Source of the DNA: Brachyhypopomus gauderio
Taxonomy: Eukaryota; Chordata; Actinopteri; Gymnotiformes; Hypopomidae
Assembly (NCBI RefSeq): GCF_052324685.1
Contig: NW_027507056.1
Coordinates: 108,501 to 172,500 of the forward strand
Direction of reading: 5' to 3'
DNA length: 64,000 nucleotides
Shown: piece by piece, positions 43,863 through 64,000 of the stretch
Layout of the letters: every line of letters starts with the position of its first letter
Numbering within the stretch: position 1 is the stretch's first letter
Position numbers and translations under genes: made by a program
Notes under the pieces: model-generated
Told to the model about the DNA's origin: nothing
The model's database searches: none
Seen by the model: only the letters and a program-made list of their open reading frames with translations

Positions 43863-44383
43863 AAGTACTCTGAATCATTGTGCCTGCAAGGAGGTGGTAA
43901 AAAGAACACATTGTGGTGATATTGACTCACTGTTGCCACTCCTCTTTTACCATCATCAGTTTGTGGACTTATGATAGGAAAAACTCAAAGAATCTTGGTG
44001 ACCTACAGGTTTGATTCATCTGCCTTCCTAGTTAAGTCATGCGAACCATTTGCTGCAAAATTGGCTTTAGCTACATTGGCAATTCATTTTGTCTTCGTAT
44101 TCCAGTGCATTGTACCGAACTGCAATATCCATCTTAGATCAACTGAGATTTTGCATTTCTCTCTTTCCCACATGCAAGTTCTGAATTTCTTGGCACACAT
44201 TACTGCTTTGCATCTACTAAAAGCACTCCAGAGAAAGCTTCACTTCATACCTTCATGAGGTAGGTGTCGTTTGTACTTGTATTTTGGTGGTATTTTTGTT
44301 TTTTTTTGTTTGTGTGCGTTGTTTGTCTACTCTTGGAACATCCTGTGATTGGTTAGGGTAGGATTAGAGTTTAATTACGTTGG
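43863..44383 (+). repeat. Truncated 24th array unit
   Basis: Follows the array consensus until ACGTTGG, then leaves it for TTAGGG repeats. It stops before the tRNA-Met gene, so it holds no tRNA. Confidence 0.95.
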
Positions 44384-44426
44384 GTTAGGGTTAGGGTTAG
44401 GGTTAGGGTTAGGGTTAGGGTAGGGG
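44382..44426 (+). repeat. Interstitial telomere repeat, six TTAGGG copies
   Basis: Six perfect TTAGGG copies at 44385-44420, then TAGGGG, in the same orientation as the terminal telomere. They sit exactly at the array breakpoint. Confidence 0.97.
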
Positions 44427-44526
44427 TCAATATTGTGAAAATGGTATTTTGCCATAGACATATGATGAAGAGGGTACAGATTAGATACACGTCCTTGACC
44501 CTAACTTTTCCTATAGGTTTTAGCAT

Positions 44527-44558
44527 GGACATGTCCATGATATATCATGAACTTGTCC
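44527..44558. promoter_or_regulatory. p53-type response element (two consensus half-sites, 12-bp spacer)
   Basis: GGACATGTCC (44527-44536) and GAACTTGTCC (44549-44558) both fit RRRCWWGYYY perfectly. The 12-bp spacer is within the 0-13 bp the family tolerates and is itself a perfect palindrome, ATGATATATCAT. Binding is inferred, not shown. Confidence 0.45.
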
Positions 44559-44559
44559 G

Positions 44560-44573
44560 CAGATAGGGGGCGC
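44560..44573 (+). promoter_or_regulatory. CTCF-like motif, plus orientation
   Basis: CAGATAGGGGGCGC matches the AGGGGGCGC core of CCASYAGRKGGCRS (about 11 of 14) and is followed by TG. It is opposite in orientation to the CTCF-like motifs found distally. Confidence 0.35.
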
Positions 44574-44730
44574 TGTGGTCAACTTTCCTGGACACTTTGC
44601 TAATAGGACAACTTAATAATAATAACCTTTTACACACTAACCCACTAGGACTGATATATAATAAGAGTATGTTACACACTAACCCACCTATAGCGCCACA
44701 TAGTGGCCATTCATCTATGGCTTATACCTC

Positions 44731-46979
44731 AGGGTAGGAAGGGGCTAGGAGGACGGGGGTTGCTGTGGGGGGGTCCTCGGGACCCCCTCGGGGCAGGGGT
44801 AGAGTCTTGGACCCCCACCCCAAAGTTGCCCCATCGGGTTAGGGTCTATAATTTTAAAGTGTCTTACGCTAGTTTTTCCACTAGTGTCAAAGTGGTATGA
44901 GTGGGTTTCAATAGGGGCTTCGGTTCCTCCGGCGCCCCCTAGCGGGGGCCTTGGAAAGGGGCCCTGGGGGCCCTCCTTTGGGGCGTGGTTAAGCTCAGGG
45001 ACCAGGATGGTTCCAAGTTCCATCCGGGTTAGGGTCCCTAACATGAAGGTGTCTTTCCCTTATTAGCAAAGTGGTATGAATGGAATCTAATGGAGATAGC
45101 GCCACCTAGCGGCAGGTTGAACTAAGGGGTTTAACTCGGGGTAGGAAGGGGCTAGGAGGACGGGGGTTGCTGTGGGGGGGGTCCTCGGGACCCCCTCGGG
45201 GCTGGGGTAGAGTCTAAGACCCACACCTCAAAGTAGCCATATCAGGTTAGGTTCCGCATCGTCAAGGTGTCTCTAAGTCTTTTTTCCCTCCCATAGGTTT
45301 ATATTGCCTTGTGTCCAAATTTCAAACGTCCGCCGCGCCCACGCCGTTCGACCTAGGGCTCCGCGGCTCGGATATGTCCGTCGTGGCCGGAGACCGGTCG
45401 AGAATCTATAATTGGGTGGGGCTACGCGGTACGGTTGCCCCGCCCGAACCCCAAACGAGTCGCAGCTGACCTTTGCGACCCGGGCCTAAAAAAAAGCCCT
45501 TTTTTGGCTGCCGTTCGGCGCCCTTTTGGCGTAGGGGTACGAAACTCGGTGAGCCCCTTCAGGGCATGGCCCCGACCGACACTCTGTGGTTCGGCGCGTC
45601 TCGGCCCGACGGTCGGCCCGCAGCGCCCCCTGGCCTACTGCATTTTTTCCTCCATTAGGTCTACATTGCCTGCCATTCAAATTTAAAACGTCAGCCACGC
45701 CCAAGCCGTTCGACCCAGGGCTCTGCGGCTTCGATATGTCCGTCGTGGCTCGGTACCGGACGATAATCTATGATCGGGTGGGGCTACGCCGTACGGTTGC
45801 CCCGCCCGAACCCCGAACGTGTTGCGGTTGACCCGTGTGACCCGGGCCTAAAAAAAAGCACATTTTCAGCTGCCTTTCGGCCCCCTTTGCACGTAGGGGT
45901 ACGAAACTCGGTGAGCCTCTTTAGGGCACGGTCCCGACCGACACTCTCCGATTCGGTGCGTTTCGGCGTGGCGGTTGGCCCGCGGCCAACCCTAACCCTA
46001 GGTTGTTAGGCCTACATTGACTGGCATACGATTTTGAAACGCCAGCCACGCCCACGCCGTTTGACCCAGGGGTCCGCGGCTTCGATATGTCGGTCCTGGC
46101 GGGCGGCCCATCGAGAATCTATGATTCGGTGGCGCTGCGCCGCACGGTCGGCCGGCGGCAATCCTCAACGTGCGTTTTCTCTCTTCTAACACCCTCTAAG
46201 TCCCACAGGACATTTTTCGGCTTTGAAAAGTTGCTGGGTGCGCGCCCGTTCGAGCCGGGGGTCCGAAATTCGGTGGGCCCCATTGGGGTATAGCCCCGAC
46301 CGACACTCTACGGTTCGGCGACGTTCGGCGCCGCGGTCGGCCCGCCGTGCGCCGTTTTTCACCACAGTAAGTGTCTATTGACTTGAATTGAAACTTTAAA
46401 CGTTTGGCCCCGCCCATGCCGTTGTTGCCAGGGGTCCGAGACTTCGATATGTCGGGCGCGGGGCGGGGGGGAAAGAGAATCTATAGTTTGGTGCGGCTGC
46501 GTTCGGCGGTTGGACTTGGAGAGCCCTTCGAAATTTGAATTTTTCTTGCTAACAGTGAGAAAAAATTAGCATCGGGTTAGTGTCTTCATCGTGTATTTGG
46601 ACTCTCATATCACCAAAGTGTCTTTGAGTACTATTACGCCACATAGTGGCCGTTTGAAGTAAGGGGTATAACTCGGGGTAGGAAGGGGGTAGGACGACGG
46701 GGGTCGCTGCGGGGGGGTCCTCCCGACCCCCTCGGGGCAGCCCCAGAGTCTGGGACCCCCGCCCCAAAGTTGCCCCATCGGGTTAGGGTCTATATTTTTA
46801 AAGTGTCTTACGCTAGTTTTTCCACTAGTGTCAAAGTGGTATGAATGGGTTTCAATGGGGCTTCGGTTCCTCTGGCGCCCCCTAGCGGGGGCCTTGGAAA
46901 GGGGCCCTGGGGGCCCTCCTTTGGGGCGTGGTTAAGCTCAGGGACCAGGATGGTTCCAAGTTTCATCCGGGTTAGGGTC
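44731..46979 (+). repeat. 2.35-kb subtelomeric block, copy 1
   Basis: Nearly identical to 47080-49328 with an offset of 2349-2350 bp; a short junction segment between them is itself a repeat of 45060-45130. It contains G-rich modules around a CpG-rich core. Open frames here match between copies only because the DNA is duplicated. Confidence 0.9.
45284..46560. repeat. CpG-rich core, four degenerate ~350-bp repeats, copy 1
   Basis: Starts near 45284, 45641, 46006 and 46361 share ACGCC-GTTCGACC-like segments, GATATGTC and GAGAATCTAT. CpG is very dense compared with flanks, so this would score as a CpG island. No protein family recognised in any frame. Confidence 0.7.
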
Positions 46980-47079
46980 CCTAACATGAAGGTGTCTTTC
47001 CCTTATTAGCAAAGTGGTATGAATGGAATCTAATGGAGATAGCGCCACCTAGCGGCAGGTTGAACTAAGGGGTTTAACT

Positions 47080-49328
47080 CGGGGTAGGAAGGGGCTAGGA
47101 GGACGGGGGTTGCTGTGGGGGGGTCCTCGGGACCCCCTCGGGGCAGGGGTAGAGTCTTGGACCCCCACCCCAAAGTTGCCCCATCGGGTTAGGGTCTATA
47201 ATTTTAAAGTGTCTTACGCTAGTTTTTCCACTAGTGTCAAAGTGGTATGAGTGGGTTTCAATAGGGGCTTCGGTTCCTCCGGCGCCCCCTAGCGGGGGCC
47301 TTGGAAAGGGGCCCTGGGGGCCCTCCTTTGGGGCGTGGTTAAGCTCAGGGACCAGGATGGTTCCAAGTTCCATCCGGGTTAGGGTCCCTAACATGAAGGT
47401 GTCTTTCCCTTATTAGCAAAGTGGTATGAATGGAATCTAATGGAGATAGCGCCACCTAGCGGCAGGTTGAACTAAGGGGTTTAACTCGGGGTAGGAAGGG
47501 GCTAGGAGGACGGGGGTTGCTGTGGGGGGGTCCTCGGGACCCCCTCGGGGCAGGGGTAGAGTCTGGGACCCACACCTCAAAGTAGCCATATCAGGTTAGG
47601 GTCCGCATCGTCAAGGTGTCTCTAAGTCTTTTTTCCCTCCCATAGGTTTATATTGCCTTGTGTCCAAATTTCAAACGTCCGCCGCGCCCACGCCGTTCGA
47701 CCTAGGGCTCCGCGGCTCGGATATGTCCGTCGTGGCCGGAGACCGGTCGAGAATCTATAATTGGGTGGGGCTACGCCGTACGGTTGCCCCGCCCGAACCC
47801 CAAACGAGTCGCAGCTGACCTTTGTGACCCGGGCCTAAAAAAAAGCCCTTTTTTGGCTGCCGTTCGGCCCCCTTTTGGCGTAGGGGTACGAAACTCGGTG
47901 AGCCCCTTCAGGGCATGGCCCCGACCGACACTCTGTGGTTCGGCGCGTCTCGGCCCGACGGTCGGCCCGCAGCGCCCCCTGGCCTACTGCATTTTTTCCT
48001 CCATTAGGTCTACATTGCCTGCCATTCAAATTTTAAACGTCAGCCACGCCCAAGCCGTTCGACCCAGGGCTCTGCGGCTTCGATATGTCCGTCGTGGCTC
48101 GGTACCGAACGATAATCTATGATCGGGTGGGGCTACGCCGTACGGTTGCCCCGCCCGAACCCCGAACGTGTTGCGGTTGACCCTTGTGACCCGGGCCTAA
48201 AAAAAAGCACATTTTCAGCTGCCTTTCGGCCCCCTTTGCACGTAGGGGTATGAAACTCGGTGAGCCTCTTCAGGGCACGGTCCCGACCGACACTCTCCGA
48301 TTCGGTGCGTTTCGGCGCGGCGGTTGGCCCGCGGCCAACCCTAACCCTAGGTTGTTAGGCCTACATTGACTGGCATACGATTTTGAAACGCCAGCCACGC
48401 CCACGCCGTTCGACCCAGGGGTCCGCGGCTTCGATATGTCGGTCCTGGCGGGCGGCCCATCGAGAATCTATGATTCGGTGGCGCTGCGCCGCACGGTCGG
48501 CCGGCGGCAATCCTCAACGTGCGTTTTCTCTCTTCTAACACCCTCTAAGTCCCACAGGACATTTTTCGGCTTCGAAAAGTTGCTGGGTGCGCGCCCGTTC
48601 GAGCCGGGGGTCCGAAATTCGGTGGGCCCCATCGGGGTATAGCCCCGAACGACACTCTACGGTTCGGCGACGTTCGGCGCCGCGGTTGGCCCGCCGTGCG
48701 CCGTTTTTCACCACAGTAAGTGTCTATTGACTTGAATTGAAACTTTAAACGTTTGGCCACGCCCATGCCGTTGTTGCCAGGGGTCCGAGACTTCGATATG
48801 TCGGGCGCGGGGCGGGGGGGAAAGAGAATCTATAGTTTGGTGCGGCTGCATTCGGCGGTTGGACTTGGAGAGCCCTTCGAAATTTGAATTTTTCTTGCTA
48901 ACAGTGAGAAAAAATTAGCATCGGGTTAGTGTCTTCATCGTGTATTTGGACTCTCATATCACCAAAGTGTCTTTGAGTACTATTACGCCACATAGTGGCC
49001 GTTCGAAGTAAGGGGTATAACTCGGGGTAGGAAGGGGGTAGGACGACGGGGGTCGCTGCGGGGGGGTCCTCCCGACCCCCTCGGGGCAGCCCCAGAGTCT
49101 GGGACCCCCACCCCAAAGTTGCCCCATCGGGTTAGGGTCTATATTTTTAAAGTGTCTTACGCTAGTTTTTCCACTAGTGTCAAAGTGGTATGAATGGGTT
49201 TCAATGGGGCTTCGGTTCCTCTGGCGCCCCCTAGCGGGGGCCTTGGAAAGGGGCCCTGGGGGCCCTCCTTTGGGGCGTGGTTAAGCTCAGGGACCAGGAT
49301 GGTTCCAAGTTCCATCCGGGTTAGGGTC
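47080..49328 (+). repeat. 2.35-kb subtelomeric block, copy 2
   Basis: Second copy of the block at 44731-46979 with scattered single-base differences. The CpG-rich core is at about 47633-48909. Confidence 0.9.
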
Positions 49329-49860
49329 TTTATCATGAAGATGTCTTCAAAGACACCTATATGATATGGGATTTTAATGGGTGTGACGCCCCCTGGTGGA
49401 CATCCAACTCGGGGTCGTAACTCGGGCCCTGGGGGGGGTAGGACCATGGGGGTCGCTGTGCGGGGGTACGGTGCACCCCCTCGGGGCAGGGGAAGAGTCT
49501 TGGACCCATACCCCAAAGTTGCCCCATCGGGTTAGGGTCTATATTTTTTAAGTGTCTTACACTAGTTTTTCACTATTGTCAAAGTGGTATGAATGGGTTT
49601 CAATGGGCGGGGCTCCTTGTCTATTGCGCCCCCTGGTGGAGATCAAACTCGGGGTCATATCTCGGGCCCTGGGGGGGGTAGGACCACGGGGTTTGCTCTG
49701 CGGGGGTACAGTGCACCCCCTCAGGGCAGGGGTAGAGTCTGGTACCCCCACCCCAAAGTTGCCCCATCGGGTTAGGGTCTTTATCATGAAGGTGTCTTCA
49801 GAGACACTTTTATGATATTTGAATGGGATCCAATGGAGATGGCGCCACCTAGCGGAGGTC
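49329..49860 (+). repeat. Mosaic of ~240/217-bp G-rich modules
   Basis: Modules share GGGTTAGGGTC, a CAAAGTGGTATGAATGG-like box, a GCGCC-type CTCF-like motif and a G-run/C-run inverted repeat. They are ancestral-looking relatives of the 240-bp array further on. Confidence 0.7.
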
Positions 49861-51150
49861 CCACCGGGTCCCTGGGGGCCCTTTTTGGGGGCGTGGTCAA
49901 GCTTTGAGGCCCCTAGGTTAGGGTCCTTATCATGAAGGTGTCTTACACATAGCGGTGAAAGTGGTATCAGGTTGCGGGGCTAGGGTGCACCTTTTTGGGG
50001 GAAGATTTTTGACTCGGAGGGGTAGCTATGGAAGTCCGTTCAACCCCCGTTTTTTTTCTAAGTTCCAATTTTGGTTAGGGTCAATATCATGAAGGTGTCC
50101 TTCCCATAGCGGTGAAAGTGGTATCGGCTTGCGGGCCCAGGGTGCACCTTCTTGGGGGAACATTTTTGGCTCGGAGGGGGTGGGTATGGAAGTCCACCCA
50201 CCCTCTAGCGCCACCTAGGTCTGCCCAGTCTCGGGCTCACAACTCGGGCTAGGAAGGGGCCAGGACCATGGGGGTCACTGCCCGGGGGTATGGTGCACCC
50301 CCTCGGGGCAGCCCCAGAGTCTGGGACCCCCACCCCAAAGTTGCCCCATCGGGTTAGGATCTATATTTTTAAAGAGTCTCACACTAGTTTTTCACTATTG
50401 TCAAAGTGGTATGAATGGGTTTCAATGGGCGGGAGCTCCTGCACTATAGCGCCACCTAGGGCTGCCCAGTCTCGGGCTCACAACTCGGGCTAGGAAGGGG
50501 CTAGGACCATGGGGTTCACTGCCCGGGGGTCCTGGGGACCCACTCGGGGCAGCCCCAGAGTCTGGGACCCCCACCTCAAAGTCGACATCTCGGGTTAGGG
50601 TCTTGATCATGAAGGTGTCTTTAGGGACGTCTTCATGATATTTGAATGGGGGCCAATGGGGACTGCGCCACCTAGAGGACGTCACACCGGGCCCCTGGGG
50701 GCCCTTTTTGGGGGCGTGGTCAAGGTTCGAGGCCCCTAGGTTAGGGTCAATATCATGAAGGCGTCTTTCCCATAGCGGTGAAAGTGGTATCGGCTTGCGG
50801 GCCCAGGGTGCACCTTTTTGGGGGAAGATTTTTGACTCGGAGGGGTAGCTATGGAAGTCCGTTCAACCCCCGTTTTTTTTCTAAGTTCCAATTTTGGTTA
50901 GGGTCAATATCATGAAGGTGTCTTTCCCATAGCGGTGAAAGTGGTATCGGCTTGCGGGCCCAGGGTGCACCTTCTTGGGGGAACATTTTTGGCTTGGAGG
51001 GGGTGGGTATGGAAGTCCACCCACCCTCTAGCGCCACCTAGGTCTGCCCAGTCTCGGGCTCACAACTCGGGCTAGGAAGGGGCCACGACCATGGGGGTCA
51101 CTGCCCGGGGGTCCTGGGGACCCACTCGGGGCAGCCCCAGAGTCTCATAC
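49861..51150 (+). repeat. 823-bp tandem duplication
   Basis: Segments around 50026-50214 and 50849-51037 are nearly identical at 823-bp offset. Both contain CATAGCGGTGAAAGTGGTATC boxes, a T8 run near 50050/50873 and a CTAGCGCCACCTAGG site. Confidence 0.8.
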
Positions 51151-51160
51151 CCCCTCCCCA

Positions 51161-54100
51161 AAGTTGCCCCATCGGGTTAGGGTCTATATTTTTAAAGAGT
51201 CTTACACTAGTTATTCACTATTGTCAAAATGGTATGAATGGGTTTCAATGGGCGGGGCTCCTTGACTATTGCGCCCCCTGGTGGAGCTCAAACTTGGGGT
51301 CATAACTCGGGCCCTGGGGGGGGTACGACGACGGGGTTTGCTCTGCGGGGGTATGGTGCACCCCCTCGGGGCAGGGGTAGAGCCTCATACCCCCTCCCCA
51401 AAGTTGCCCCATCGGGTTAGGGTCTATATTTTTAAAGAGTCTTACACTAGTTTTTCACTATTGTCAAAGTGGTATGAATGGGTTTCAATGGGCGGGGCTC
51501 CTTGACTATTGCGCCCCCTGGTGGAGCTCAAACTTGGGGTCATAACTCGGGCCCTGGGGGGGGTACGACGACGGGGTTTACTCTGCGGGGGTATGGTGCA
51601 CCCCCTCGGGGCAGGGGTAGAGTCTCAGACCCCCTCCCCAAAGTTGCCCCATCGGGTTAGGGTCTATATTTTTTAAGAGTCTTACACTAGTTTTTCAATA
51701 TTGTCAAAGTGGTATGAATGGGTTTCAATGGGCGGGGCTCCTTGACTATTGCGCCCCCTGGTGGAGCTCAAACTTGGGGTCATAACTCGGGCCCTGGGGG
51801 GGGTACGACGACGGGGTTTGCTCTGCGGGGGTATGGTGCACCCCCTCGGGGCAGGGGTAGAGCCTCATACCCCCTCCCCAAAGTTGCCCCATTGGGTTAG
51901 GGTCTATATTTTTAAAGAGTCTTACACTAGTTTTTCACTATTGTCAAAGTGGTATGAATGGGTTTCAATGGGCGGGGCTCCTTGACTATTGCGCCCCCTG
52001 GTGGAGCTCAAACTTGGGGTCATAACTCGGGCCCTGGGGGGGGTACGACGACGGGGTTTACTCTGCGGGGGTATGGTGCACCCCCTCGGGGCAGGGGTAG
52101 AGTCTCAGACCCCCTCCCCAAAGTTGCCCCATCGTGTTAGGGTCTATATTTTTAAAGAGTCTTACACTAGTTTTTCAATATTGTCAAAGTGGTATGAATG
52201 GGTTTCAATGGGCGGGGCTCCTTGACTATTGCGCCCCCTTGTGGAGCTCAAACTTGGGGTCATAACTCGGGCCCTGGGGGGGGTACGACGACGGGGTTTG
52301 CTCTGCGGGGGTATGGTGCACCCCCTCGGGGCAGGGGTAGAGCCTCATACCCCCTCCCCAAAGTTGCCCCATCGGGTTAGGGTCTATATTTTTAAAGAGT
52401 CTTACACTAGTTTTTCACTATTGTCAAAGTGGTATGAATGGGTTTCAATGGGCGGGGCTCCTTGACTATTGCGCCCCCTGGTGGAGCTCAAACTTGGGGT
52501 CATAACTCGGGCCCTGGGGGGGGTACGACGACGGGGTTTACTCTGCTGGGGTATGGTGCACCCCCTCGGGGCAGGGGTAGAGTCTCAGACCCCCTCCCCA
52601 AAGTTGCCCCATCGGGTTAGGGTCTATATTTTTAAAGAGTCTTACACTAGTTTTTCACTATTGTCAAAGTGGTATGAATGGGTTTCAATGGGCGGGGCTC
52701 CTTGACTATTGCGCCCCCTGGTGGAGCTCAAACTTGGGGTCATAACTCGGGCCCTGGGGGGGGTATGACGACGGGGTTTACTCTGCGGGGGTATGGTGCA
52801 CCCCCTCGGGGCAGGGGTAGAGTCTCAGACCCCCTCCCCAAAGTTGCCCCATCGGGTTAGGGTCTATATTTTTTAAGAGTCTTACACTAGTTTTTCAATA
52901 TTGTCAAAGTGGTATGAATGGGTTTCAATGGGCGGGGCTCCTTGACTATTGCGCCCCCTGGTGGAGCTCAAACTTGGGGTCATAACTCGGGCCCTGGGGG
53001 GGGTACGACGACGGGGTTTGCTCTGCGGGGGTATGGTGCACCCCCTCGGGGCAGGGGTAGAGCCTCATACCCCCTCCCCAAAGTTGCCCCATCGGGTTAG
53101 GGTCTATATTTTTAAAGAGTCTTACACTAGTTTTTCACTATTGTCAAAGTGGTATGAATGGGTTTCAATGGGCGGGGCTCCTTGACTATTGCGCCCCCTG
53201 GTGGAGCTCAAACTTGGGGTCATAACTCGGGCCCTGGGGGGGGTACGACGACGGGGTTTACTCTGCGGGGGTATGGTGCACCCCCTCGGGGCAGGGGTAG
53301 AGTCTCAGACCCCCTCCCCAAAGTTGCCCCATCGGGTTAGGGTCTATATTTTTTAAGAGTCTTACACTAGTTTTTCAATATTGTCAAAGTGGTATGAATG
53401 GGTTTCAATGGGCGGGGCTCCTTGACTATTGCGCCCCCTGGTGGAGCTCAAACTTGGGGTCATAACTCGGGCCCTGGGGGGGGTACGACGACGGGGTTTG
53501 CTCTGCGGGGGTATGGTGCACCCCCTCGGGGCAGGGGTAGAGCCTCATACCCCCTCCCCAAAGTTGCCCCATCGGGTTAGGGTCTATATTTTTAAAGAGT
53601 CTTACACTAGTTTTTCACTATTGTCAAAGTGGTATGAATGGGTTTCAATGGGCGGGGCTCCTTGACTATTGCGCCCCCTGGTGGAGCTCAAACTTGGGGT
53701 CATAACTCGGGCCCTGGGGGGGGTACGACGACGGGGTTTACTCTGCGGGGGTATGGTGCACCCCCTCGGGGCAGGGGTAGAGTCTCAGACCCCCTCCCCA
53801 AAGTTGCCCCATCGGGTTAGGGTCTATATTTTTTAAGAGTCTTACACTAGTTTTTCAATATTGTCAAAGTGGTATGAATGGGTTTCAATGGGCGGGGCTC
53901 CTTGACTATTGCGCCCCCTGGTGGAGCTCAAACTTGGGGTCATAACTCGGGCCCTGGGGGGGGTACGACCACGGGGTTTGCTCTGCGGGGGTATGGTGCA
54001 CCCCCTCGGGGCAGGGGTAGAGCCTCATACCCCCTCCCCAAAGTTGCCCCATCGGGTTAGGGTCTATATTTTTAAAGAGTCTTACACTAGTTTTTCACTA

Positions 54101-55248
54101 TTGTCAAAGTGGTATGAATGGGTTTCAATGGGCGGGGCTCCTTGACTATTGCGCCCCCTGGTGGAGCTCAAACTTGGGGTCATAACTCGGGCCCTGGGGG
54201 GGGTACGACGACGGGGTTTACTCTGCGGGGGTATGGTGCACCCCCTCGGGGCAGGGGTAGAGTCTCAGACCCCCTCCCCAAAGTTGCCCCATCGGGTTAG
54301 GGTCTATATTTTTAAAGAGTCTTACACTAGTTTTTCACTATTGTCAAAGTGGTATGAATGGGTTTCAATGGGCGGGGCTCCTTGACTATTGCGCCCCCTT
54401 GTGGAGCTCAAACTTGGGGTCATAACTCGGGCCCTGGGGGGGTACGACGACGGGGTTTACTCTGCGGGGGTATGGTGCACCCCCTCGGGGCAGGGGTAGA
54501 GTCTCATACCCCCTCCCCAAAGTTGCCCCATCGGGTTAGGGTCTATATTTTTAAAGAGTCTTACACTAGTTTTTCACTATTGTCAAAGTGGTATGAATGG
54601 GTTTCAATGGGCGGGGCTCCTTGACTATTGCGCCCCCTGGTGGAGCTCAAACTTGGGGTCATAACTCGGGCCCTGGGGGGGGTACGACGACGGGGTTTAC
54701 TCTGCGGGGGTATGGTGCACCCCCTCGGGGCAGGGGTAGAGTCTCAGACCCCCTCCCCAAAGTTGCCCCATCGGGTTAGGGTCTATATTTTTAAAGAGTC
54801 TTACACTAGTTTTTCAATATTGTCAAAGTGGTATGAATGGGTTTCAATGGGCGGGGCTCCTTGACTATTGCGCCCCCTGGTGGAGCTCAAACTTGGGGTC
54901 ATAACTCGGGCCCTGGGGGGGGTACGACGATGGGGTTTACTCTGCGGGGGTATGGTGCACCCCCTCGGGGCAGGGGTAGAGTCTCAGACCCCCTCCCCAA
55001 AGTTGCCCCATCGGGTTAGGGTCTATATTTTTAAAGAGTCTTACACTAGTTTTTCAATATTGTCAAAGTGGTATGAATGGGTTTCAATGGGCGGGGCTCC
55101 TTGACTATTGCGCCCCCTGGTGGAGCTCAAACTTGGGGTCATAACTCGGGCCCTGGGGGGGGTACGACGACGGGGTTTGCTCTGCGGGGGTATGGTGCAC
55201 CCCCTCGGGGCAGGGGTAGAGCCTCATACCCCCACCCCAAAGTAGGCA
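51161..55248 (+). repeat. 240-bp tandem array, 17 copies
   Basis: Exact 240-bp period with one 239-bp step near 54440. Two subtypes, AGCCTCATAC and AGTCTCAGAC, mostly alternate, giving a 480-bp higher-order period that is broken near 52561-52801 and distally. Each copy has one GGGTTAGGGTC, one GC box and one CTCF consensus. The period is a multiple of 3, which creates recurrent 60- and 78-codon open frames that I do not consider genes. Confidence 0.95.
51271..55123 (-). promoter_or_regulatory. 17 regularly spaced CTCF consensus sites with adjacent GC boxes
   Basis: On the minus strand each unit reads CCACCAGGGGGCGC, a full match to CCASYAGRKGGCRS. Starts are 51271 and every 240 bp to 54391, then 54630, 54870 and 55110. 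The copies at 52231 and 54391 read CCACAAGGGGGCGC. A GC box GGGCGGGGC begins 21 bp upstream on the plus strand (51250 in the first copy). Confidence 0.65.
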
Positions 55249-55323
55249 TGTCGGGTTAGGGTCCATATTATCAAGGTGTCTTTCCATTATCAGCAAAGTG
55301 GTATGAATGGAATCTAATGGAGG

Positions 55324-55570
55324 TGACTAATAAGTGCCTAACAATGAACTAATAAACAATTAATAAGCTGATAATAGGCTAATAATAAACTAATAAGTGC
55401 CTAATAATTAACTAATAATTTAATAATAAGCTAATATTAGCCTAATAATGAACGAATAGATAATTAATAAGCTAATATTAGGCTATTAATGAACTAATAA
55501 GTGACTAATAATGAACCAATAAACAAATATTAGGCTAATAATAGGCTAATAAATTGCTAATAAGTCACTA
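55324..55570. repeat. AT-rich CTAATAATGAACTAATAAG-type repeat, first block
   Basis: Degenerate TAAT-rich tandem repeat between two G-rich arrays. It includes the palindromic GCTAATATTAGC-like motif. Confidence 0.85.
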
Positions 55571-55675
55571 ATAACTCAAGCTAGAAAGGGGTACATAAAC
55601 GGGGGTCATTGAGGGGGGGTCTGGTGGACCCCCTCAAGGCATGGGTAGAGTCTGGGACCCCCCACCCCAAAGTTG

Positions 55676-57060
55676 TGCCCCGGGTTAGGCTCGATATAAT
55701 CAAGGTGGTATATCCGTATTATGAAAGTGTCTTAGAGTCTCCTGTTAAGCCCTGGGGCACAACTCGGGGTCTGCCGACTGGGGTCACTAGGAGGCGGGCC
55801 CACCCCCTCGGGTAGGGGTAAAATCTGGTTCCCCGACCCCAAAGTTGTGCCCCGGGATAGGGTCGATATAATCAAGGTGGTATACCCGTATTATGAAAGT
55901 GTCTTAGGGTCTCCTGTTAAGGCCTGGGGCACAACTCGGGGTCTGCCGAGTGGGGTCACTAGGAGGCGGGCCCACCCCCTCGGGTAGGGGTAAAATCTGG
56001 TTCCCCGACCCCAAAGTTGTGCCCCGGGATAGGGTCGATATAATCAAGGTGGTATACCCGTATTATGAAAGTGTCTTAGGGTCTCCTGTTAAGGCCTGGG
56101 GCACAACTCGGGGTCTGCCGAGTGGGGTCACTAGGAGGCGGGCCCACCCCCTCGGGTAGGGGTAAAATCTGGTTCCCCGACCCCAAAGTTGTGCCCCGGG
56201 ATAGGGTCGATATAATCAAGGTGGTATATCCGTATTATGAAAGTGTCTTAGAGTCTCCTGTTAAGCCCTGGGGCACAACTCGGGGTCTGCCGAGTGGGGT
56301 CACTAGGAGGCGGGCCCACCCCCTCGGGTAGGGGTAAAATCTGGTTCCCCGACCCCAAAGTTGTGCCCCGGGATAGGGTCGATATAATCAAGGTGGTATA
56401 TCCGTATTATGAAAGTGTCTTAGAGTCTCCTGTTAAGCCCTGGGGCACAACTCGGGGTCTGCCGACTGGGGTCACTAGGAGGCGGGCCCACCCCCTCGGG
56501 TAGGGGTAAAATCTGGTTCCCCGACCCCAAAGTTGTGCCCCGGGATAGGGTCGATATAATCAAGGTGGTATACCCGTATTATGAAAGTGTCTTAGGGTCT
56601 CCTGTTAAGGCCTGGGGCACAACTCGGGGTCTGCCGAGTGGGGTCACTAGGAGGCGGGCCCACCCCCTCGGGTAGGGGTAAAATCTGGTTCCCCGACCCC
56701 AAAGTTGTGCCCCGGGATAGGGTCGATATAATCAAGGTGGTATACCCGTATTATGAAAGTGTCTTAGGGTCTCCTGTTAAGGCCTGGGGCACAACTCGGG
56801 GTCTGCCGAGTGGGGTCACTAGGAGGCGGGCCCACCCCCTCGGGTAGGGGTAAAATCTGGTTCCCCGACCCCAAAGTTGTGCCCCGGGATAGGGTCGATA
56901 TAATCAAGGTGGTATATCCGTATTATGAAAGTGTCTTAGAGTCTCCTGTTAAGCCCTGGGGCACAACTCGGGGTCTGCCGAGTGGGGTCACTAGGAGGCG
57001 GGCCCACCCCCTCGGGTAGGGGTAAAGTTCGGTTCCCTGACCCCAAAGTTGTGCCTCGGG
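55676..57060 (+). repeat. 172-bp tandem array, 8 copies
   Basis: Exact 172-bp period. Subtypes a (TATATCCG, TTAAGCCC) and b (TATACCCG, TTAAGGCC) run a-b-b-a-a-b-b-a, so the higher-order unit is four copies (688 bp) present twice. No CTCF-like motif found here. Recurrent 69-codon frames are repeat artefacts. Confidence 0.95.
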
Positions 57061-57128
57061 TTAGGCTCGATATCATTGAGGTGTCTTTCCATTATTAGCA
57101 AAGTGGTATGAATGGAATCAAATGGAGG

Positions 57129-57855
57129 TGACTAATAAGTGCCTAATAATGAATTAATAAATAATAATAAGCTAATAATAGGCTAATAATGAAATAATAA
57201 ATGATTAATAAGCTAATATTAGCCTAATAATGAACGAATAAGTCTCTAATAATGAACTAATAATTTATTAATAAGCTAATATTAGGCTAATAATGAACTA
57301 ATAAGTGTCTAATAATGAACTAATAATTTATTAATAAGCTAATATTAGGCTAATTGTGAACTAATAAGTGCCTAATAATTAACTAATAATTTAATAATAA
57401 GCTAATATTAGCCTAATAATGAACTAATAAGTCTCTAATAATGAACTAATAATTTATTAATAAGCTAATATTAGGCTAATAATGAAATAATAAGTGCCTA
57501 ATAATGAACTAATAATTTATTAATAATCTAATATGTGTCTAATAATGAACGAATAATTTAATAATAAGCTAATATTAGCCAAATAATGAACTAATAAGTC
57601 TCTAATAATGAACTAATAATTTATTAATAATCTAATATTAGGCTAATAATGAACTAATAAGTGTCTAATAATGAACTAATAATTTATTAATAATCTAATA
57701 TTAGGCTAATAATGAACTAATAAGTGCCTAATAATGAACTAATACTTTATTAATAAGCTAATATTAGCCTAATAATGAACTAATAAGTGCCTAATAATGA
57801 ACCAAATAAACTAATATTAGGCTAATAATATGCTAATAAATTGCTAATAAGTCAC
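57129..57855. repeat. AT-rich ~63-bp tandem repeat, second block
   Basis: Repeats of CTAATAATGAACTAATAA and TTATTAATAAGCTAATATTAGG with about 63-bp spacing (57275 to 57338, for example). Almost free of CpG, in sharp contrast to neighbours. Confidence 0.9.
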
Positions 57856-58015
57856 TAATAACTCATGTAAGAAAGGTGTTACATAGATGGGGGTTACTGC
57901 GGGGGGGTCCTCTGGACCCCCTCGGGGCAGGGGTAGAGTCTGGGACCCCCACCTCAAAATAGACATTTCAGGTTAGGGTCCATATCATCAATGTGTCTCA
58001 GACATCAATATGATA
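57856..58015 (+). repeat. Single G-rich module
   Basis: One module with GGGGGTCC-TCT-GGACCCCC and CAGGTTAGGGTCC, related to the modules at 58437-59098. Confidence 0.7.
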
Positions 58016-58023
58016 TGAATGCA

Positions 58024-58165
58024 AAAAGTGACTAATAGTGAGCTAATAAACCCATACTATTGAGCTAATAGTTGGATATCAAAGAACTAATAAGTGACTA
58101 ATAAGCTAATAATTGACTAATAATGAGTTGATAAGTGACTAAGTAGTTAATAAGTGACTAATGTA
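58024..58165. repeat. AT-rich repeat, third block
   Basis: CTAATAAGTGACTAATAAG-type sequence, more diverged than the first two blocks. Confidence 0.7.
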
Positions 58166-58436
58166 TAACCCTAAAAACCCACTTCTATGCTATTTCCATT
58201 CATACCACTTTGCTAATATCATTCGTACAGTTCATACCACTTTGATGATACTCAAATTGGTTCTTATGGATAACCCTAAAAACCCACTTTGGTGATACCA
58301 GTCATACCACTTTGATGATACGTGAATTGGTTGTTGTGGATAACCCTAAAAACCCACTTCTACGCTATTTCCATTCATACCACTTTGGTAATACCATTCA
58401 TACCATTCATACCACTTTGCTGATACATTCATACCA
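58166..58436 (-). repeat. Inverted fragments of the subtelomeric CAAAGTGG box
   Basis: CCATTCATACCACTTTG and shortened forms recur (near 58196, 58229, 58302, 58373, 58400). This is the reverse complement of the CAAAGTGGTATGAATGG box carried by the G-rich modules. TAACCCTAAAAACCCACTT also appears three times (58167, 58272, 58342). Confidence 0.75.
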
Positions 58437-59098
58437 TTACCAGGTGAGGGTCCATATCATTAAGGTGTCTTTCCTGTATTGGCAAAGTGGTATGAATGGA
58501 ACCTAATGGAGATAGCGCCACATAGTGGCCGTTCGAAGTAAGGGGTATAACTCGGGGTAGGAAGGGGGTTGGATGACAGGTGTCACTGCGGGGGGGTCCG
58601 GTGGACCCCCTCAGGGTAGGGGTAGAGTCTGGGACCCCCACCTCAAAATAGACATTTCAGGTTATTGTCCATATCATCAAGGTGTCTTTCCTTTATTAGC
58701 AAAGTGGTATGAATGGAACCTAATGGAGATAGCGCCACATAGTGGCCATTCGAAAAAAGGAGTATAACTCGGGGTAGGAAGGGGGTAGGTGGGTGGGGGT
58801 CACTGCGGGGGGGTCCTCCCAACCCCCTCGGGGTAGGGGTAGAGTCTGGGACCCCCAACTCAAAATAGACATTTCAGGTTAGGGTCCATATCATCAAGGT
58901 GTTTTCCCTTATTGACAAAGTGGTATGAATGAAATCTAATGGAGATAGCGCCACATAGTGGCCGTTCGAACTAAGGGGTATAACTCGGGGTAGGAAGGGG
59001 GTTGGATGATGGGGGTCACTGCGGGGGGGTCCTACGGACCCCCTCGGGGCAGGGGTAGAGTCTGGGACCCCCACCTCAAAATAGACATTTCAGGTTAG
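58437..59098 (+). repeat. ~217-bp tandem repeat, three copies
   Basis: CAGGT-beginning modules start near 58440, 58657, 58875, with the next partial at 59092. Each has a CAAAGTGGTATGAATG box, a CCACTATGTGGCGC CTCF-like motif (58515, 58732, 58948, minus strand) and a GGGGGTCC/GGACCCCC-type inverted repeat. Confidence 0.9.
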
Positions 59099-59136
59099 TG
59101 TTAAGGGTTAGGCGCTGTTAAGATTTTTCAAAGTCC

Positions 59137-59560
59137 AAGAATATACCAGCAGCATAGACACTTAGAATAAAAAAGAGGCCGTTTTAAATAAAATATACCA
59201 GTAGCATAGACACTTAGAAAAAAATAGAGGCCGTTTTAAATTAAATATACCAGTAGCATAGACACTTAGAAAAAAAATAGAGGCCTTTTTAAATTAAATA
59301 TACCAGAGGCATAGACACTTAGAAAAAAATAGAGGCCTTTTTAAATTAAATATACCAGAGGCATAGACACTTAGAAAAAAATAGAGGCCTTTTTAAATTA
59401 AATATACCAGAGGCATAGACACTTAGACTAAAATAGAGGTCTGTTTAAATGAAATATACCAGTAGAAAAGACACTTTGAGTAAAAAAGGCCATTTTAAAT
59501 AAAATATACCATGGCCAAATGAACTTAGAATAAAAGAGGAGAGTTTAGTTTAAATTATAC
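59137..59560 (+). repeat. 52-bp tandem array, about 8 copies
   Basis: ATACCAG-AGGCATAGACACTTAGA boxes recur at 59143, 59195, 59247, 59300, 59352, 59404 and 59456, then decay. Units contain an A-run followed by GAGGCC. Confidence 0.9.
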
Positions 59561-60500: not shown

Positions 60501-60930
60501 GAATATGCACAAAGTCCATAAATATACCAGCAGCACGAAGTTTTCAAGTGGAAAATATTCTATGTCGCTTCATTTGGTATACCATAGGCGTCAGTTTTCG
60601 GCGAAAATAATTCTATGTCGATAAAAATGTTATACCATACGTATGATTTTGTGTTCAAAAATCGCACTATGTTCCAATTTTGACCAAGGGGTGGATCATC
60701 CAGAGGCCTCGATCCTCTGACAGTGCCCGCCGAATGTGCACCCAGACGGACATGCATCTCATTCCCCCTGTCTGGATGATTTTATGAATGGGTGATATGC
60801 AAACACCTACCATCAGGTATATAGGGGAGAGGGTCTTCTGAAAGCCACATATATGGTATACCATAAATGAAGACAAGGATTATGGCGCACGCTTTGCCCG
60901 ACCAAAGGTCACTCCCTGGGCATTTTAGAG
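60501..60930. other. Diverged subtelomeric spacer
   Basis: No coding signal I trust. It carries TATACCA motifs and a distant copy of the 59.69-59.76-kb segment. Confidence 0.5.
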
Positions 60931-60933
60931 GAT

Positions 60934-61425
60934 TTGACAGGCCTCTTTATGGATCTCACAAACGATCCATGCATGGAATTTTGCACACTTTATCCGAATA
61001 AAGTGCACTTTTGGGCTTATGAGAGTAGGTTGGTATGCCTCTCTCTGGATGTGAGGAAGGATCCAGGAATAAAGGCATGTAATGCCACACAATTTATCCG
61101 ACTAAATGACACTCTTGGGCTTATGAGAGAGGATGAGGGGCCTCTCTGTGGATGTCAGAAAGGCTCCATGCATGAAAGCATGTAATGTCACACACTTTAT
61201 CCGATTAAAGTGCACATTTGGGCTTATGATTAAGCATGAGGGCCCTATGTGTGGATGTCAGAAAGGCTCCATGCATGAAAGCATGTAATGTCACACACTT
61301 TATCCGATTAAAGTGCACATTTGGGCTTATGATTAAGCATGAGGGCCCTATGTATGGATGTCGGAAAGGTTCCAGGCTTAAAGGCATGTAATGCCACACA
61401 CTTTATCCGATTAAAGTTCACATTT
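60934..61425 (+). repeat. 103-bp tandem array B, about 5 copies, adjoining the telomere
   Basis: The box TTTATCCGATTAAAGTGCAC has its CGATTA (or variant) at 60995, 61099, 61202, 61305 and 61408, steps of 103-104 bp. The last copy is cut by the telomere at TTTGGG. Confidence 0.93.
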
Positions 61426-64000
61426 GGGTTAGGGTTAGGGTTAGGGTTAGGGTTAGGGTTAGGGTTAGGGTTAGGGTTAGGGTTAGGGTTAGGGTTAGGG
61501 TTAGGGTTAGGGTTAGGGTTAGGGTTAGGGTTAGGGTTAGGTTAGGGTTAGGGTTAGGGTTAGGGTTAGGGTTAGGGTTAGGGTTAGGGTTAGGGTTAGG
61601 GTTAGGGTTAGGTTAGGGTTAGGGTTAGGGTTAGGGTTAGGGTTAGGGTTAGGGTTAGGGTTAGGGTTAGGGTTAGGGTTAGGGTTAGGGTTAGGGTTAG
61701 GGTTAGGGTTAGGGTTAGGGTTAGGGTTAGGGTTAGGGTTAGGGTTAGGGTTAGGGTTAGGGTTAGGGTTAGGGTTAGGGTTAGGGTTAGGGTTAGGGTT
61801 AGGGTTAGGGTTAGGGTTAGGGTTAGGGTTAGGGTTAGGGTTAGGGTTAGGGTTAGGGTTAGGGTTAGGGTTAGGGTTAGGGTTAGGGTTAGGGTTAGGG
61901 TTAGGGTTAGGGTTAGGGTTAGGGTTAGGGTTAGGGTTAGGGTTAGGGTTAGGGTTAGGGTTAGGGTTAGGGTTAGGGTTAGGGTTAGGGTTAGGGTTAG
62001 GGTTAGGGTTAGGGTTAGGGTTAGGGTTAGGGTTAGGGTTAGGGTTAGGGTTAGGGTTAGGGTTAGGGTTAGGGTTAGGGTTAGGGTTAGGGTTAGGGTT
62101 AGGGTTAGGGTTAGGGTTAGGGTTAGGGTTAGGGTTAGGGTTAGGGTTAGGGTTAGGGTTAGGGTTAGGGTTAGGGTTAGGGTTAGGGTTAGGGTTAGGG
62201 TTAGGGTTAGGGTTAGGGTTAGGGTTAGGGTTAGGGTTAGGGTTAGGGTTAGGGTTAGGGTTAGGGTTAGGGTTAGGGTTAGGGTTAGGGTTAGGGTTAG
62301 GGTTAGGGTTAGGGTTAGGGTTAGGGTTAGGGTTAGGGTTAGGGTTAGGGTTAGGGTTAGGGTTAGGGTTAGGGTTAGGGTTAGGGTTAGGGTTAGGGTT
62401 AGGGTTAGGGTTAGGGTTAGGGTTAGGGTTAGGGTTAGGGTTAGGGTTAGGGTTAGGGTTAGGGTTAGGGTTAGGGTTAGGGTTAGGGTTAGGGTTAGGG
62501 TTAGGGTTAGGGTTAGGGTTAGGGTTAGGGTTAGGGTTAGGGTTAGGGTTAGGGTTAGGGTTAGGGTTAGGGTTAGGGTTAGGGTTAGGGTTAGGGTTAG
62601 GGTTAGGGTTAGGGTTAGGGTTAGGGTTAGGGTTAGGGTTAGGGTTAGGGTTAGGGTTAGGGTTAGGGTTAGGGTTAGGGTTAGGGTTAGGGTTAGGGTT
62701 AGGGTTAGGGTTAGGGTTAGGGTTAGGGTTAGGGTTAGGGTTAGGGTTAGGGTTAGGGTTAGGGTTAGGGTTAGGGTTAGGGTTAGGGTTAGGGTTAGGG
62801 TTAGGGTTAGGGTTAGGGTTAGGGTTAGGGTTAGGGTTAGGGTTAGGGTTAGGGTTAGGGTTAGGGTTAGGGTTAGGGTTAGGGTTAGGGTTAGGGTTAG
62901 GGTTAGGGTTAGGGTTAGGGTTAGGGTTAGGGTTAGGGTTAGGGTTAGGGTTAGGGTTAGGGTTAGGGTTAGGGTTAGGGTTAGGGTTAGGGTTAGGGTT
63001 AGGGTTAGGGTTAGGGTTAGGGTTAGGGTTAGGGTTAGGGTTAGGGTTAGGGTTAGGGTTAGGGTTAGGGTTAGGGTTAGGGTTAGGGTTAGGGTTAGGG
63101 TTAGGGTTAGGGTTAGGGTTAGGGTTAGGGTTAGGGTTAGGGTTAGGGTTAGGGTTAGGGTTAGGGTTAGGGTTAGGGTTAGGGTTAGGGTTAGGGTTAG
63201 GGTTAGGGTTAGGGTTAGGGTTAGGGTTAGGGTTAGGGTTAGGGTTAGGGTTAGGGTTAGGGTTAGGGTTAGGGTTAGGGTTAGGGTTAGGGTTAGGGTT
63301 AGGGTTAGGGTTAGGGTTAGGGTTAGGGTTAGGGTTAGGGTTAGGGTTAGGGTTAGGGTTAGGGTTAGGGTTAGGGTTAGGGTTAGGGTTAGGGTTAGGG
63401 TTAGGGTTAGGGTTAGGGTTAGGGTTAGGGTTAGGGTTAGGGTTAGGGTTAGGGTTAGGGTTAGGGTTAGGGTTAGGGTTAGGGTTAGGGTTAGGGTTAG
63501 GGTTAGGGTTAGGGTTAGGGTTAGGGTTAGGGTTAGGGTTAGGGTTAGGGTTAGGGTTAGGGTTAGGGTTAGGGTTAGGGTTAGGGTTAGGGTTAGGGTT
63601 AGGGTTAGGGTTAGGGTTAGGGTTAGGGTTAGGGTTAGGGTTAGGGTTAGGGTTAGGGTTAGGGTTAGGGTTAGGGTTAGGGTTAGGGTTAGGGTTAGGG
63701 TTAGGGTTAGGGTTAGGGTTAGGGTTAGGGTTAGGGTTAGGGTTAGGGTTAGGGTTAGGGTTAGGGTTAGGGTTAGGGTTAGGGTTAGGGTTAGGGTTAG
63801 GGTTAGGGTTAGGGTTAGGGTTAGGGTTAGGGTTAGGGTTAGGGTTAGGGTTAGGGTTAGGGTTAGGGTTAGGGTTAGGGTTAGGGTTAGGGTTAGGGTT
63901 AGGGTTAGGGTTAGGGTTAGGGTTAGGGTTAGGGTTAGGGTTAGGGTTAGGGTTAGGGTTAGGGTTAGGGTTAGGGTTAGGGTTAGGGTTAGGGTTAGGG
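61426..64000 (+). repeat. Terminal telomere, (TTAGGG)n, 2.57 kb
   Basis: About 429 copies of the G-strand repeat running to the window end, oriented as a right chromosome end. Two units are shortened to TTAGG (near 61537-61541 and 61607-61611); the remaining ~2.39 kb looks perfect. Confidence 0.98.

What the first reader, a model, noticed from the sequence alone, without database searches (positions are those of the whole stretch)
44693..58961. About 37 same-facing CTCF consensus sites in one subtelomere
Nearly every G-rich module carries a minus-strand CCNNYAKRKGGCGC-type motif, and 17 lie in a row at 240 bp. All have one orientation, which in the loop-extrusion model stops cohesin arriving from the chromosome interior. 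A single opposite site sits at the inner edge (44560). This looks like an amplified boundary element between tRNA array and telomere.
Basis: partly seen in the sequence, partly recalled or inferred. Interest (0 to 1): 0.78.

Follow-up and report, generated by a model that had tools for sequence, protein, structure and literature searches.

The report
Mostly one-way CTCF sites near telomere
The repeated DNA just inside a chromosome end, apparently of a bony fish, carries dozens of well-preserved landing sites for the genome-folding protein CTCF, nearly all the strong ones pointing away from the telomere, but whether CTCF really sits there has not been tested.

Summary
The motif array is real. 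A recalled CTCF matrix finds 32 minus-strand and 0 plus-strand sites (p<1e-5) in 44500-59200, against about 0.3 per strand in Markov controls; 17 lie in the 240-bp array.

The window's own genome is held (796.5 Mb). It encodes CTCF with near-human zinc fingers. The modules recur on other contigs, one strand per contig in the 100 of 208 places listed.

Equal spacing and shared strand follow from tandem copying. But between diverged modules the motif varies where the CTCF matrix tolerates it (p 0.0001-0.0032), and its CpG survives where most others decayed. That favours a kept binding site over a passenger, without proving occupancy.

Best reading: a subtelomeric satellite with inward-facing CTCF sites, working like DXZ4 arrays or human subtelomeric CTCF sites; cohesin stopping is inferred only. 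The human 17p family is described as pointing toward the telomere instead. New variant of a known kind; interest 0.5.

The parts
44691..45115 (-). First modules; CTCF sites at 44691, 44930, 45097 (scores 17.3, 15.9, 19.8)
   Evidence: matrix scan
45261..46560 (.). About 362-bp repeats, CpG o/e 1.20, a GCGCCCCCTG core at 45623 below the p<1e-4 cut
46575..47600 (-). 407-bp-type modules; CTCF sites at 46873, 47040, 47280, 47447, weaker at 46634
47601..48920 (.). Second block of about 362-bp repeats, CpG o/e 1.20
48924..51170 (-). Mixed modules of 146-280 bp; CTCF sites at 49222, 49384, 49624, 49840, 50663; weaker at 48983 and 50447
51120..55269 (-). 240-bp tandem array, 17 CTCF sites at 51269 to 55108, plus a weaker second minus-strand match (9.0) in the units
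55659..57073 (+). 172-bp tandem array with eight plus-strand CTCF-like sites (score 11.2) at 55781 to 56985
   Evidence: 30 places on 4 contigs
58441..59098 (-). 217-bp array; CTCF sites at 58513, 58730, 58946, all with T at a near-invariant matrix position
44382..44425 (.). Short interstitial TTAGGG tract at the inner edge, next to the tRNA array
61426..64000 (+). Telomere tract (GGGTTA)n

Best explanation
This is a subtelomeric satellite built of modules of about 150-280 bp: a TTAGGGTC box, an AAAGTGGTATGAATGG box, a CTCF site, an AACTCGGG box and a GC-rich palindrome, in one polarity relative to the telomere (not every module has every box). Shown: the site matches the CTCF matrix, the host encodes CTCF with the same fingers, and between modules the site varies mostly in ways CTCF tolerates. 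Inferred: CTCF occupies many of these sites, which keeps their CpG from methylation decay. Inferred further: with the consensus pointing inward, bound CTCF presents its N-terminal side to the chromosome interior and stalls cohesin extruding outward, making a one-sided, redundant barrier and loop anchor before the telomere. Since most modules have their own site, the barrier would survive the copy-number changes usual in subtelomeres. The weaker outward-facing sites of the 172-bp array could make the outer edge two-sided. My estimates: motif kept as a CTCF site 0.75; bound in vivo 0.65; acts as cohesin barrier or anchor 0.45.
For: 32 minus / 0 plus sites at p<1e-5 in the region against about 0.3 per strand in 100 Markov versions; 9 of 14 non-redundant modules hit against a mean of 0.11 for 300 column-permuted matrices. 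Of 140 anchors found by a box outside the motif, 118 have a site of 13.15 or more. Variation inside the motif follows matrix information content over 26 distinct 19-mers (rho 0.73, p 0.0004; core rho 0.59, p 0.011). The 14 distinct core substitution types cost on average 3.0 bits against 4.6 for all 42 possible; p 0.0014, 0.0030 if matched for transitions; 0.0001-0.0032 over four assumed ancestors. Motif CpG kept in 12 of 13 modules while nine other CpG columns keep 23-54%. CTCF finger exons 82-98% identical to human in tblastn pieces, one further stretch identical by eye. CCACCAGAGGGCGC 899 times genome-wide, 0 for the reversed control. On contig C92, 51 minus / 0 plus at score 11 or more in 14 kb.
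Against: No ChIP, methylation or contact data. Concerted evolution makes modules non-independent, so the p values are optimistic. Other boxes are as conserved or more (motif window ranks 20th of 203), and the AACTCGGG CpG is kept too (10 of 10), so constraint is not special to the CTCF motif. CpG depletion suggests germ-line methylation of the modules. The 217-bp variant has T at a near-invariant position. Eight sites point the other way. Four true module boxes are followed by no site. One column-permuted matrix hit 7 of 14 modules by accident. C19's modules have the wrong strand for a left end, if it is one.
Confidence: 0.5

Rival explanations
1. Passenger motif. The satellite's founder module happened to contain a CTCF-like sequence, as other repeats in this genome do; unequal exchange and gene conversion copied it with the rest. 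Strand and spacing are by-products; methylated, compacted subtelomeric DNA leaves the sites mostly unbound.
For: One founding event explains strand and spacing. Modules are CpG-depleted. An interspersed repeat (L007, L008) carries CTCF-like sites too. Other boxes of the module are equally or better conserved.
Against: Tolerated-change pattern inside the motif and survival of its CpG beside decayed ones are not expected of a mere passenger.
Confidence: 0.33
2. TERRA control. CTCF sites and the CpG-rich 362-bp blocks form start sites for transcription toward the telomere, as at human subtelomeres.
For: Human 17p-family CTCF sites drive TERRA (PMC5727389, passages). CpG-island-like blocks lie among the modules (o/e 1.20). 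The 172-bp sites face the telomere.
Against: The strong sites face inward, opposite to the human description; the CpG-rich blocks are 12-16 kb from TTAGGG; no RNA data.
Confidence: 0.12
3. Another factor. The kept core is read by a different zinc-finger protein or serves recombination or replication of the satellite, and only resembles a CTCF site.
For: The genome has many C2H2 genes (305 matches); other boxes of unknown use are kept as well.
Against: The match extends over the 14-bp CTCF core and the tolerated changes follow the CTCF matrix.
Confidence: 0.05

Closest known systems
Human subtelomeric CTCF/cohesin sites (17p family) beside TERRA start sites
   Same: CTCF motifs in tandem inside homology blocks shared by several chromosome ends (PMC5727389, passages)
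   Different: [quoted passage not shown] Here: dozens, about 2.5-17 kb from TTAGGG, strong ones pointing away; binding untested.
DXZ4/Dxz4 macrosatellite
   Same: Tandem repeat with CTCF motifs in tandem orientation; inverting the mouse locus redirects long-range contacts (PMC5899087, passages). The same paper says human DXZ4 has two sets of motifs in opposite orientation, as here at lower stringency.
   Different: A single X-linked locus with CTCF binding shown; here subtelomeric, on several contigs, far shorter units, binding untested.
Human 1q23.3 tRNA tandem repeat bound by CTCF
   Same: tRNA tandem array associated with CTCF; [quoted passage not shown]
   Different: There the CTCF site is inside the tRNA unit; here the tRNA array has no match at p<1e-4 and the sites are in the neighbouring satellite.
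CTCF sites carried by interspersed repeats
   Same: A repeat family that carries and spreads CTCF motifs; an example is in this genome (L007, L008)
   Different: That example has both strands and is interspersed; this family is tandem and on one strand per contig in the listed places.

Membership tests
CTCF binding site (sequence level) | Match to the CTCF matrix above chance | tested here: met
   32 minus-strand sites at p<1e-5 against about 0.3 expected per strand; matrix recalled from memory
CTCF binding site (sequence level) | Host CTCF with conserved DNA-reading zinc fingers | tested here: met
CTCF binding site (sequence level) | Occupancy by CTCF in cells | not testable with these tools
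   No ChIP or CUT&RUN data
Tandem CTCF array (DXZ4-like) | Tandem repeat with a same-strand CTCF site in each unit | tested here: met
   240-bp array: 17 sites, all minus
Tandem CTCF array (DXZ4-like) | Motifs unidirectional over the whole locus (as described for mouse Dxz4, not for human DXZ4) | tested here: not met
   8 plus-strand sites of score 11.2 in the 172-bp array
Tandem CTCF array (DXZ4-like) | Orientation-dependent long-range contacts | not testable with these tools
   No Hi-C or Micro-C
Human-type subtelomeric CTCF/TERRA element | CTCF motif within a few kb of TTAGGG, pointing to the telomere | tested here: not met
   Nearest module site at p<1e-5 (58946) is about 2.5 kb away but points inward; the outward 172-bp sites score 11.2 and lie 4.4-5.6 kb away
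Human-type subtelomeric CTCF/TERRA element | CpG island at the CTCF sites | tested here: inconclusive
   362-bp blocks have CpG o/e 1.20 but lie 12-16 kb from TTAGGG; modules 0.42-0.58
Domain boundary / insulator | Cohesin enrichment and contact insulation | not testable with these tools
   No RAD21 or contact data

The most novel reading that the evidence does not exclude
Chromosome ends of this species have evolved a redundant, directional cohesin barrier: a fast-changing subtelomeric satellite in which only a few boxes, the CTCF core among them, are held constant, so that tens of inward-facing CTCF sites per end keep loop extrusion out of the telomere whatever the copy number.
Probability: 0.25. 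Interest if true: 0.8.

Novelty: new variant of a known kind. Interest (0 to 1): 0.5.

Why it matters
If CTCF occupies these modules, this genome offers natural arrays of tens of same-facing CTCF sites next to a telomere, with natural variants (strong, one-substitution, costly G>T, reversed). One could then ask directly whether dense one-way CTCF arrays stop cohesin before telomeres, and whether subtelomeric satellites are selected for boundary function rather than merely tolerated. It would also give a non-mammalian comparison, apparently of opposite polarity, for human subtelomeric CTCF sites.

Tried and rejected
Counting all sites as independent evidence was rejected: the region is tandem repeats, so tests were redone on 14 non-redundant modules and on distinct motif variants and substitution types. 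A first module cut used fuzzy anchors that split 240-bp units wrongly; it was redone with fixed anchors. One search's first variability test mixed in non-homologous sites, chiefly CTGCCCCGAGGGGGTGCAC; it was repeated with box-anchored sites, where 13 of the 17 anchors scoring under 8.42 are off-target and 4 are true boxes with no site. Of the C19 loci only L010 of four, of C37 seven of 17 and of C30 five of eight (enough to cover the stretch) went into. One search's flank comparison is not used: modules were chosen for diverged flanks, so it is partly circular, and 2 of its 14 rows are not homologous sites. Rfam on 41000-64000 gave 5 tRNA matches only. Taking the genome-wide counts (11,983 against 242 reversed; 899 against 0) as proof of CTCF use was rejected: some hits are in repeats, and both reversed controls contain one CpG more than the pattern.

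Paper searches: from the listed titles and abstract starts I saw no report of CTCF arrays in fish subtelomeres; most lists were capped (for example 12 of 42, 10 of 60), one search found none, and only open-licence papers are held. Deng et al. 2012 is not held and is known here only as cited in PMC7760354 (passages).

Full report
What is there. From the inside outward: a tRNA array of 23 units (Met, Ser, Asp), a short interstitial TTAGGG tract (44382-44425), G-rich modules (44.7-55.3 kb) interrupted by two blocks of CpG-rich 362-bp repeats, an AT-rich array, a 172-bp array, a second AT-rich array, a 217-bp array, a subterminal region and the telomere. Repeats in the fetched loci look teleostean to me; that is recall, not a test.

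The observation. The simple pattern gives 29 matches, all on one strand, 0.07 expected. A 19-column CTCF matrix, recalled as MA0139.1, gives 32 minus-strand sites at p<1e-5 in 44500-59200, 24 of them at 16.95 (p<1e-6) or more, and none on the plus strand; 100 Markov versions of the region average 0.30-0.33 per strand. Seventeen sites sit in the 240-bp array. The tRNA array has no match even at p<1e-4, though its 23 units are near-copies. The site called opposite at 44560 scores 9.0.

How much is independent. Modules are copies, so strand and spacing come free. Cut at the TTAGGGTC box there are 46 modules, 14 of them non-redundant. Nine of the 14 have a minus-strand site at p<1e-5, none a plus-strand one; 300 column-permuted matrices average 0.11 modules hit (284 hit none, one reached 7), and 300 Markov sets average 0.19, largest 2.

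Is the motif kept? Against: among the 14 modules the motif window ranks 20th of 203 in conservation; the TTAGGGTC and AAAGTGGTATGAATGG boxes rank higher. For: of 11 CpG columns examined (those with CG in at least 3 modules and 8 or more letters), the motif CpG survives in 12 of 13 modules and the AACTCGGG CpG in 10 of 10, while the other nine survive in 23-54%, in four of them mainly replaced by TpG or CpA. With sites from the window, C37, C30, C92, C6 and C19, located by a box outside the motif, 118 of 140 anchors have a site of 13.15 or more and 17 fall under 8.42 (13 off-target anchors, 4 true boxes with no site). Over 26 distinct 19-mers, variability by position follows matrix information content (rho 0.73, p 0.0004; core rho 0.59, p 0.011), and the 15 variant cores lose 77.8 bits in all against 153.5 (sd 14.2) under random placement, 0 of 2000 simulations doing as well. 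Collapsed to 14 distinct core substitution types the mean cost is 3.0 bits against 4.6 for all 42 possible changes, p 0.0014, or 0.0030 matched for transitions; four choices of ancestor give p from 0.0001 to 0.0032. None of these tests models concerted evolution, so the p values are optimistic.

Is there a reader? On the fetched 5 kb pieces align at 93% (55 of 59), 98% (45 of 46) and 82% (58 of 71), and a stretch from SGEKPYECYICHARF to IARKSDL is identical by eye inside a longer alignment that runs through introns. The human matrix is therefore a fair guide. CCACCAGAGGGCGC occurs 899 times in the genome, 0 for the reversed control, which has one CpG more; some come as same-strand pairs 4-5 kb apart and may sit in repeats.

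Other ends. The box-plus-motif pattern occurs 208 times (97 forward, 111 reverse; control 0). The 100 places listed are on one strand per contig: C6 1, C19 4, C30 8 and C37 21 forward; C48 26, C55 1 and C92 39 reverse. C37's forward modules lie near its right end, which holds a TTAGGG tract (L039), as in the window; these are the only two ends checked directly. The first 1500 bases of C48 and of C92 read N, and C30's last 1500 bases hold no TTAGGG. C19's four forward modules lie 12.7-54.5 kb from the left end of a 16.2-Mb contig whose first 1500 bases hold no telomere tract: single modules in what looks like a 13.8-kb unit, and an exception to the polarity if that end is a true chromosome end. 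On C92, 14 kb holds 51 minus and 0 plus sites at 11 or more, read with the telomere to the right as inferred from module order. A second pattern (motif plus ACTCGGG) gives 175 places, control 0; several of the 100 listed are in chromosome interiors, some plainly unrelated to the module. The 172-bp plus-strand site occurs 30 times on four contigs: C37 8, C92 7, C212 8, C247 7. A 421-bp subterminal piece is near-identical in all 40 scored of 248 candidates, on 24 contigs. So this is a homogenised subtelomeric repeat family with some internal fragments.

Mechanism. If bound, tens of sites would make a redundant one-way stop, with the weaker outward-facing 172-bp sites perhaps stopping cohesin from the telomere side. 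[quoted passage not shown] the strong sites here have the opposite polarity if that paper uses the usual convention, which the passage does not state. Mouse Dxz4, with mostly unidirectional tandem motifs, shows that inversion redirects contacts (PMC5899087, passages). The human 1q23.3 tRNA repeat binds CTCF and keeps to mouse only tRNA genes and a CTCF motif (PMC4041453, abstract and section 17).

Verdict. A real motif array, ordinary in its tandem regularity, unusual in density and place, with moderate evidence that the CTCF core is kept. Occupancy and boundary function are untested.

Noticed in passing
window 45261-46560 and 47601-48920: Two blocks of about 362-bp repeats with CpG o/e 1.20 inside CpG-depleted modules; CpG-island-like, possible promoter.
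   Followed up: partly
window 60560-60980 and 24 contigs of G000: A 421-bp subterminal piece is near-identical in all 40 scored places; on several contigs copies lie about 20-24 kb apart, suggesting large tandem subtelomeric units.
   Followed up: no
window 1-43801: tRNA array with two unit lengths, about 1976 and about 1660 bp, with the same three tRNA genes.
   Followed up: no
window 58196-58440: Cluster of the AAAGTGGTATGAATGG box in the opposite orientation, unlike the other module boxes found.
   Followed up: no
L007 and L008 (C1:917455-922320): An interspersed repeat with several strong CTCF-like sites, mostly one strand with some opposite.
   Followed up: partly
L010-L013 (C19:11242-56016): Single CTCF modules repeated every 13.8-14.1 kb near the left end of a 16.2-Mb contig, forward strand.
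   Followed up: partly
L039 (C37 right end): The TTAGGG tract decays into G-rich and then GTTAAAG-like sequence up to the contig end; looks like a read or assembly artefact.
   Followed up: partly
C1 places listed: Many canonical CTCF-core matches come in same-strand pairs 4-5 kb apart, as paired repeats such as long terminal repeats would give.
   Followed up: no
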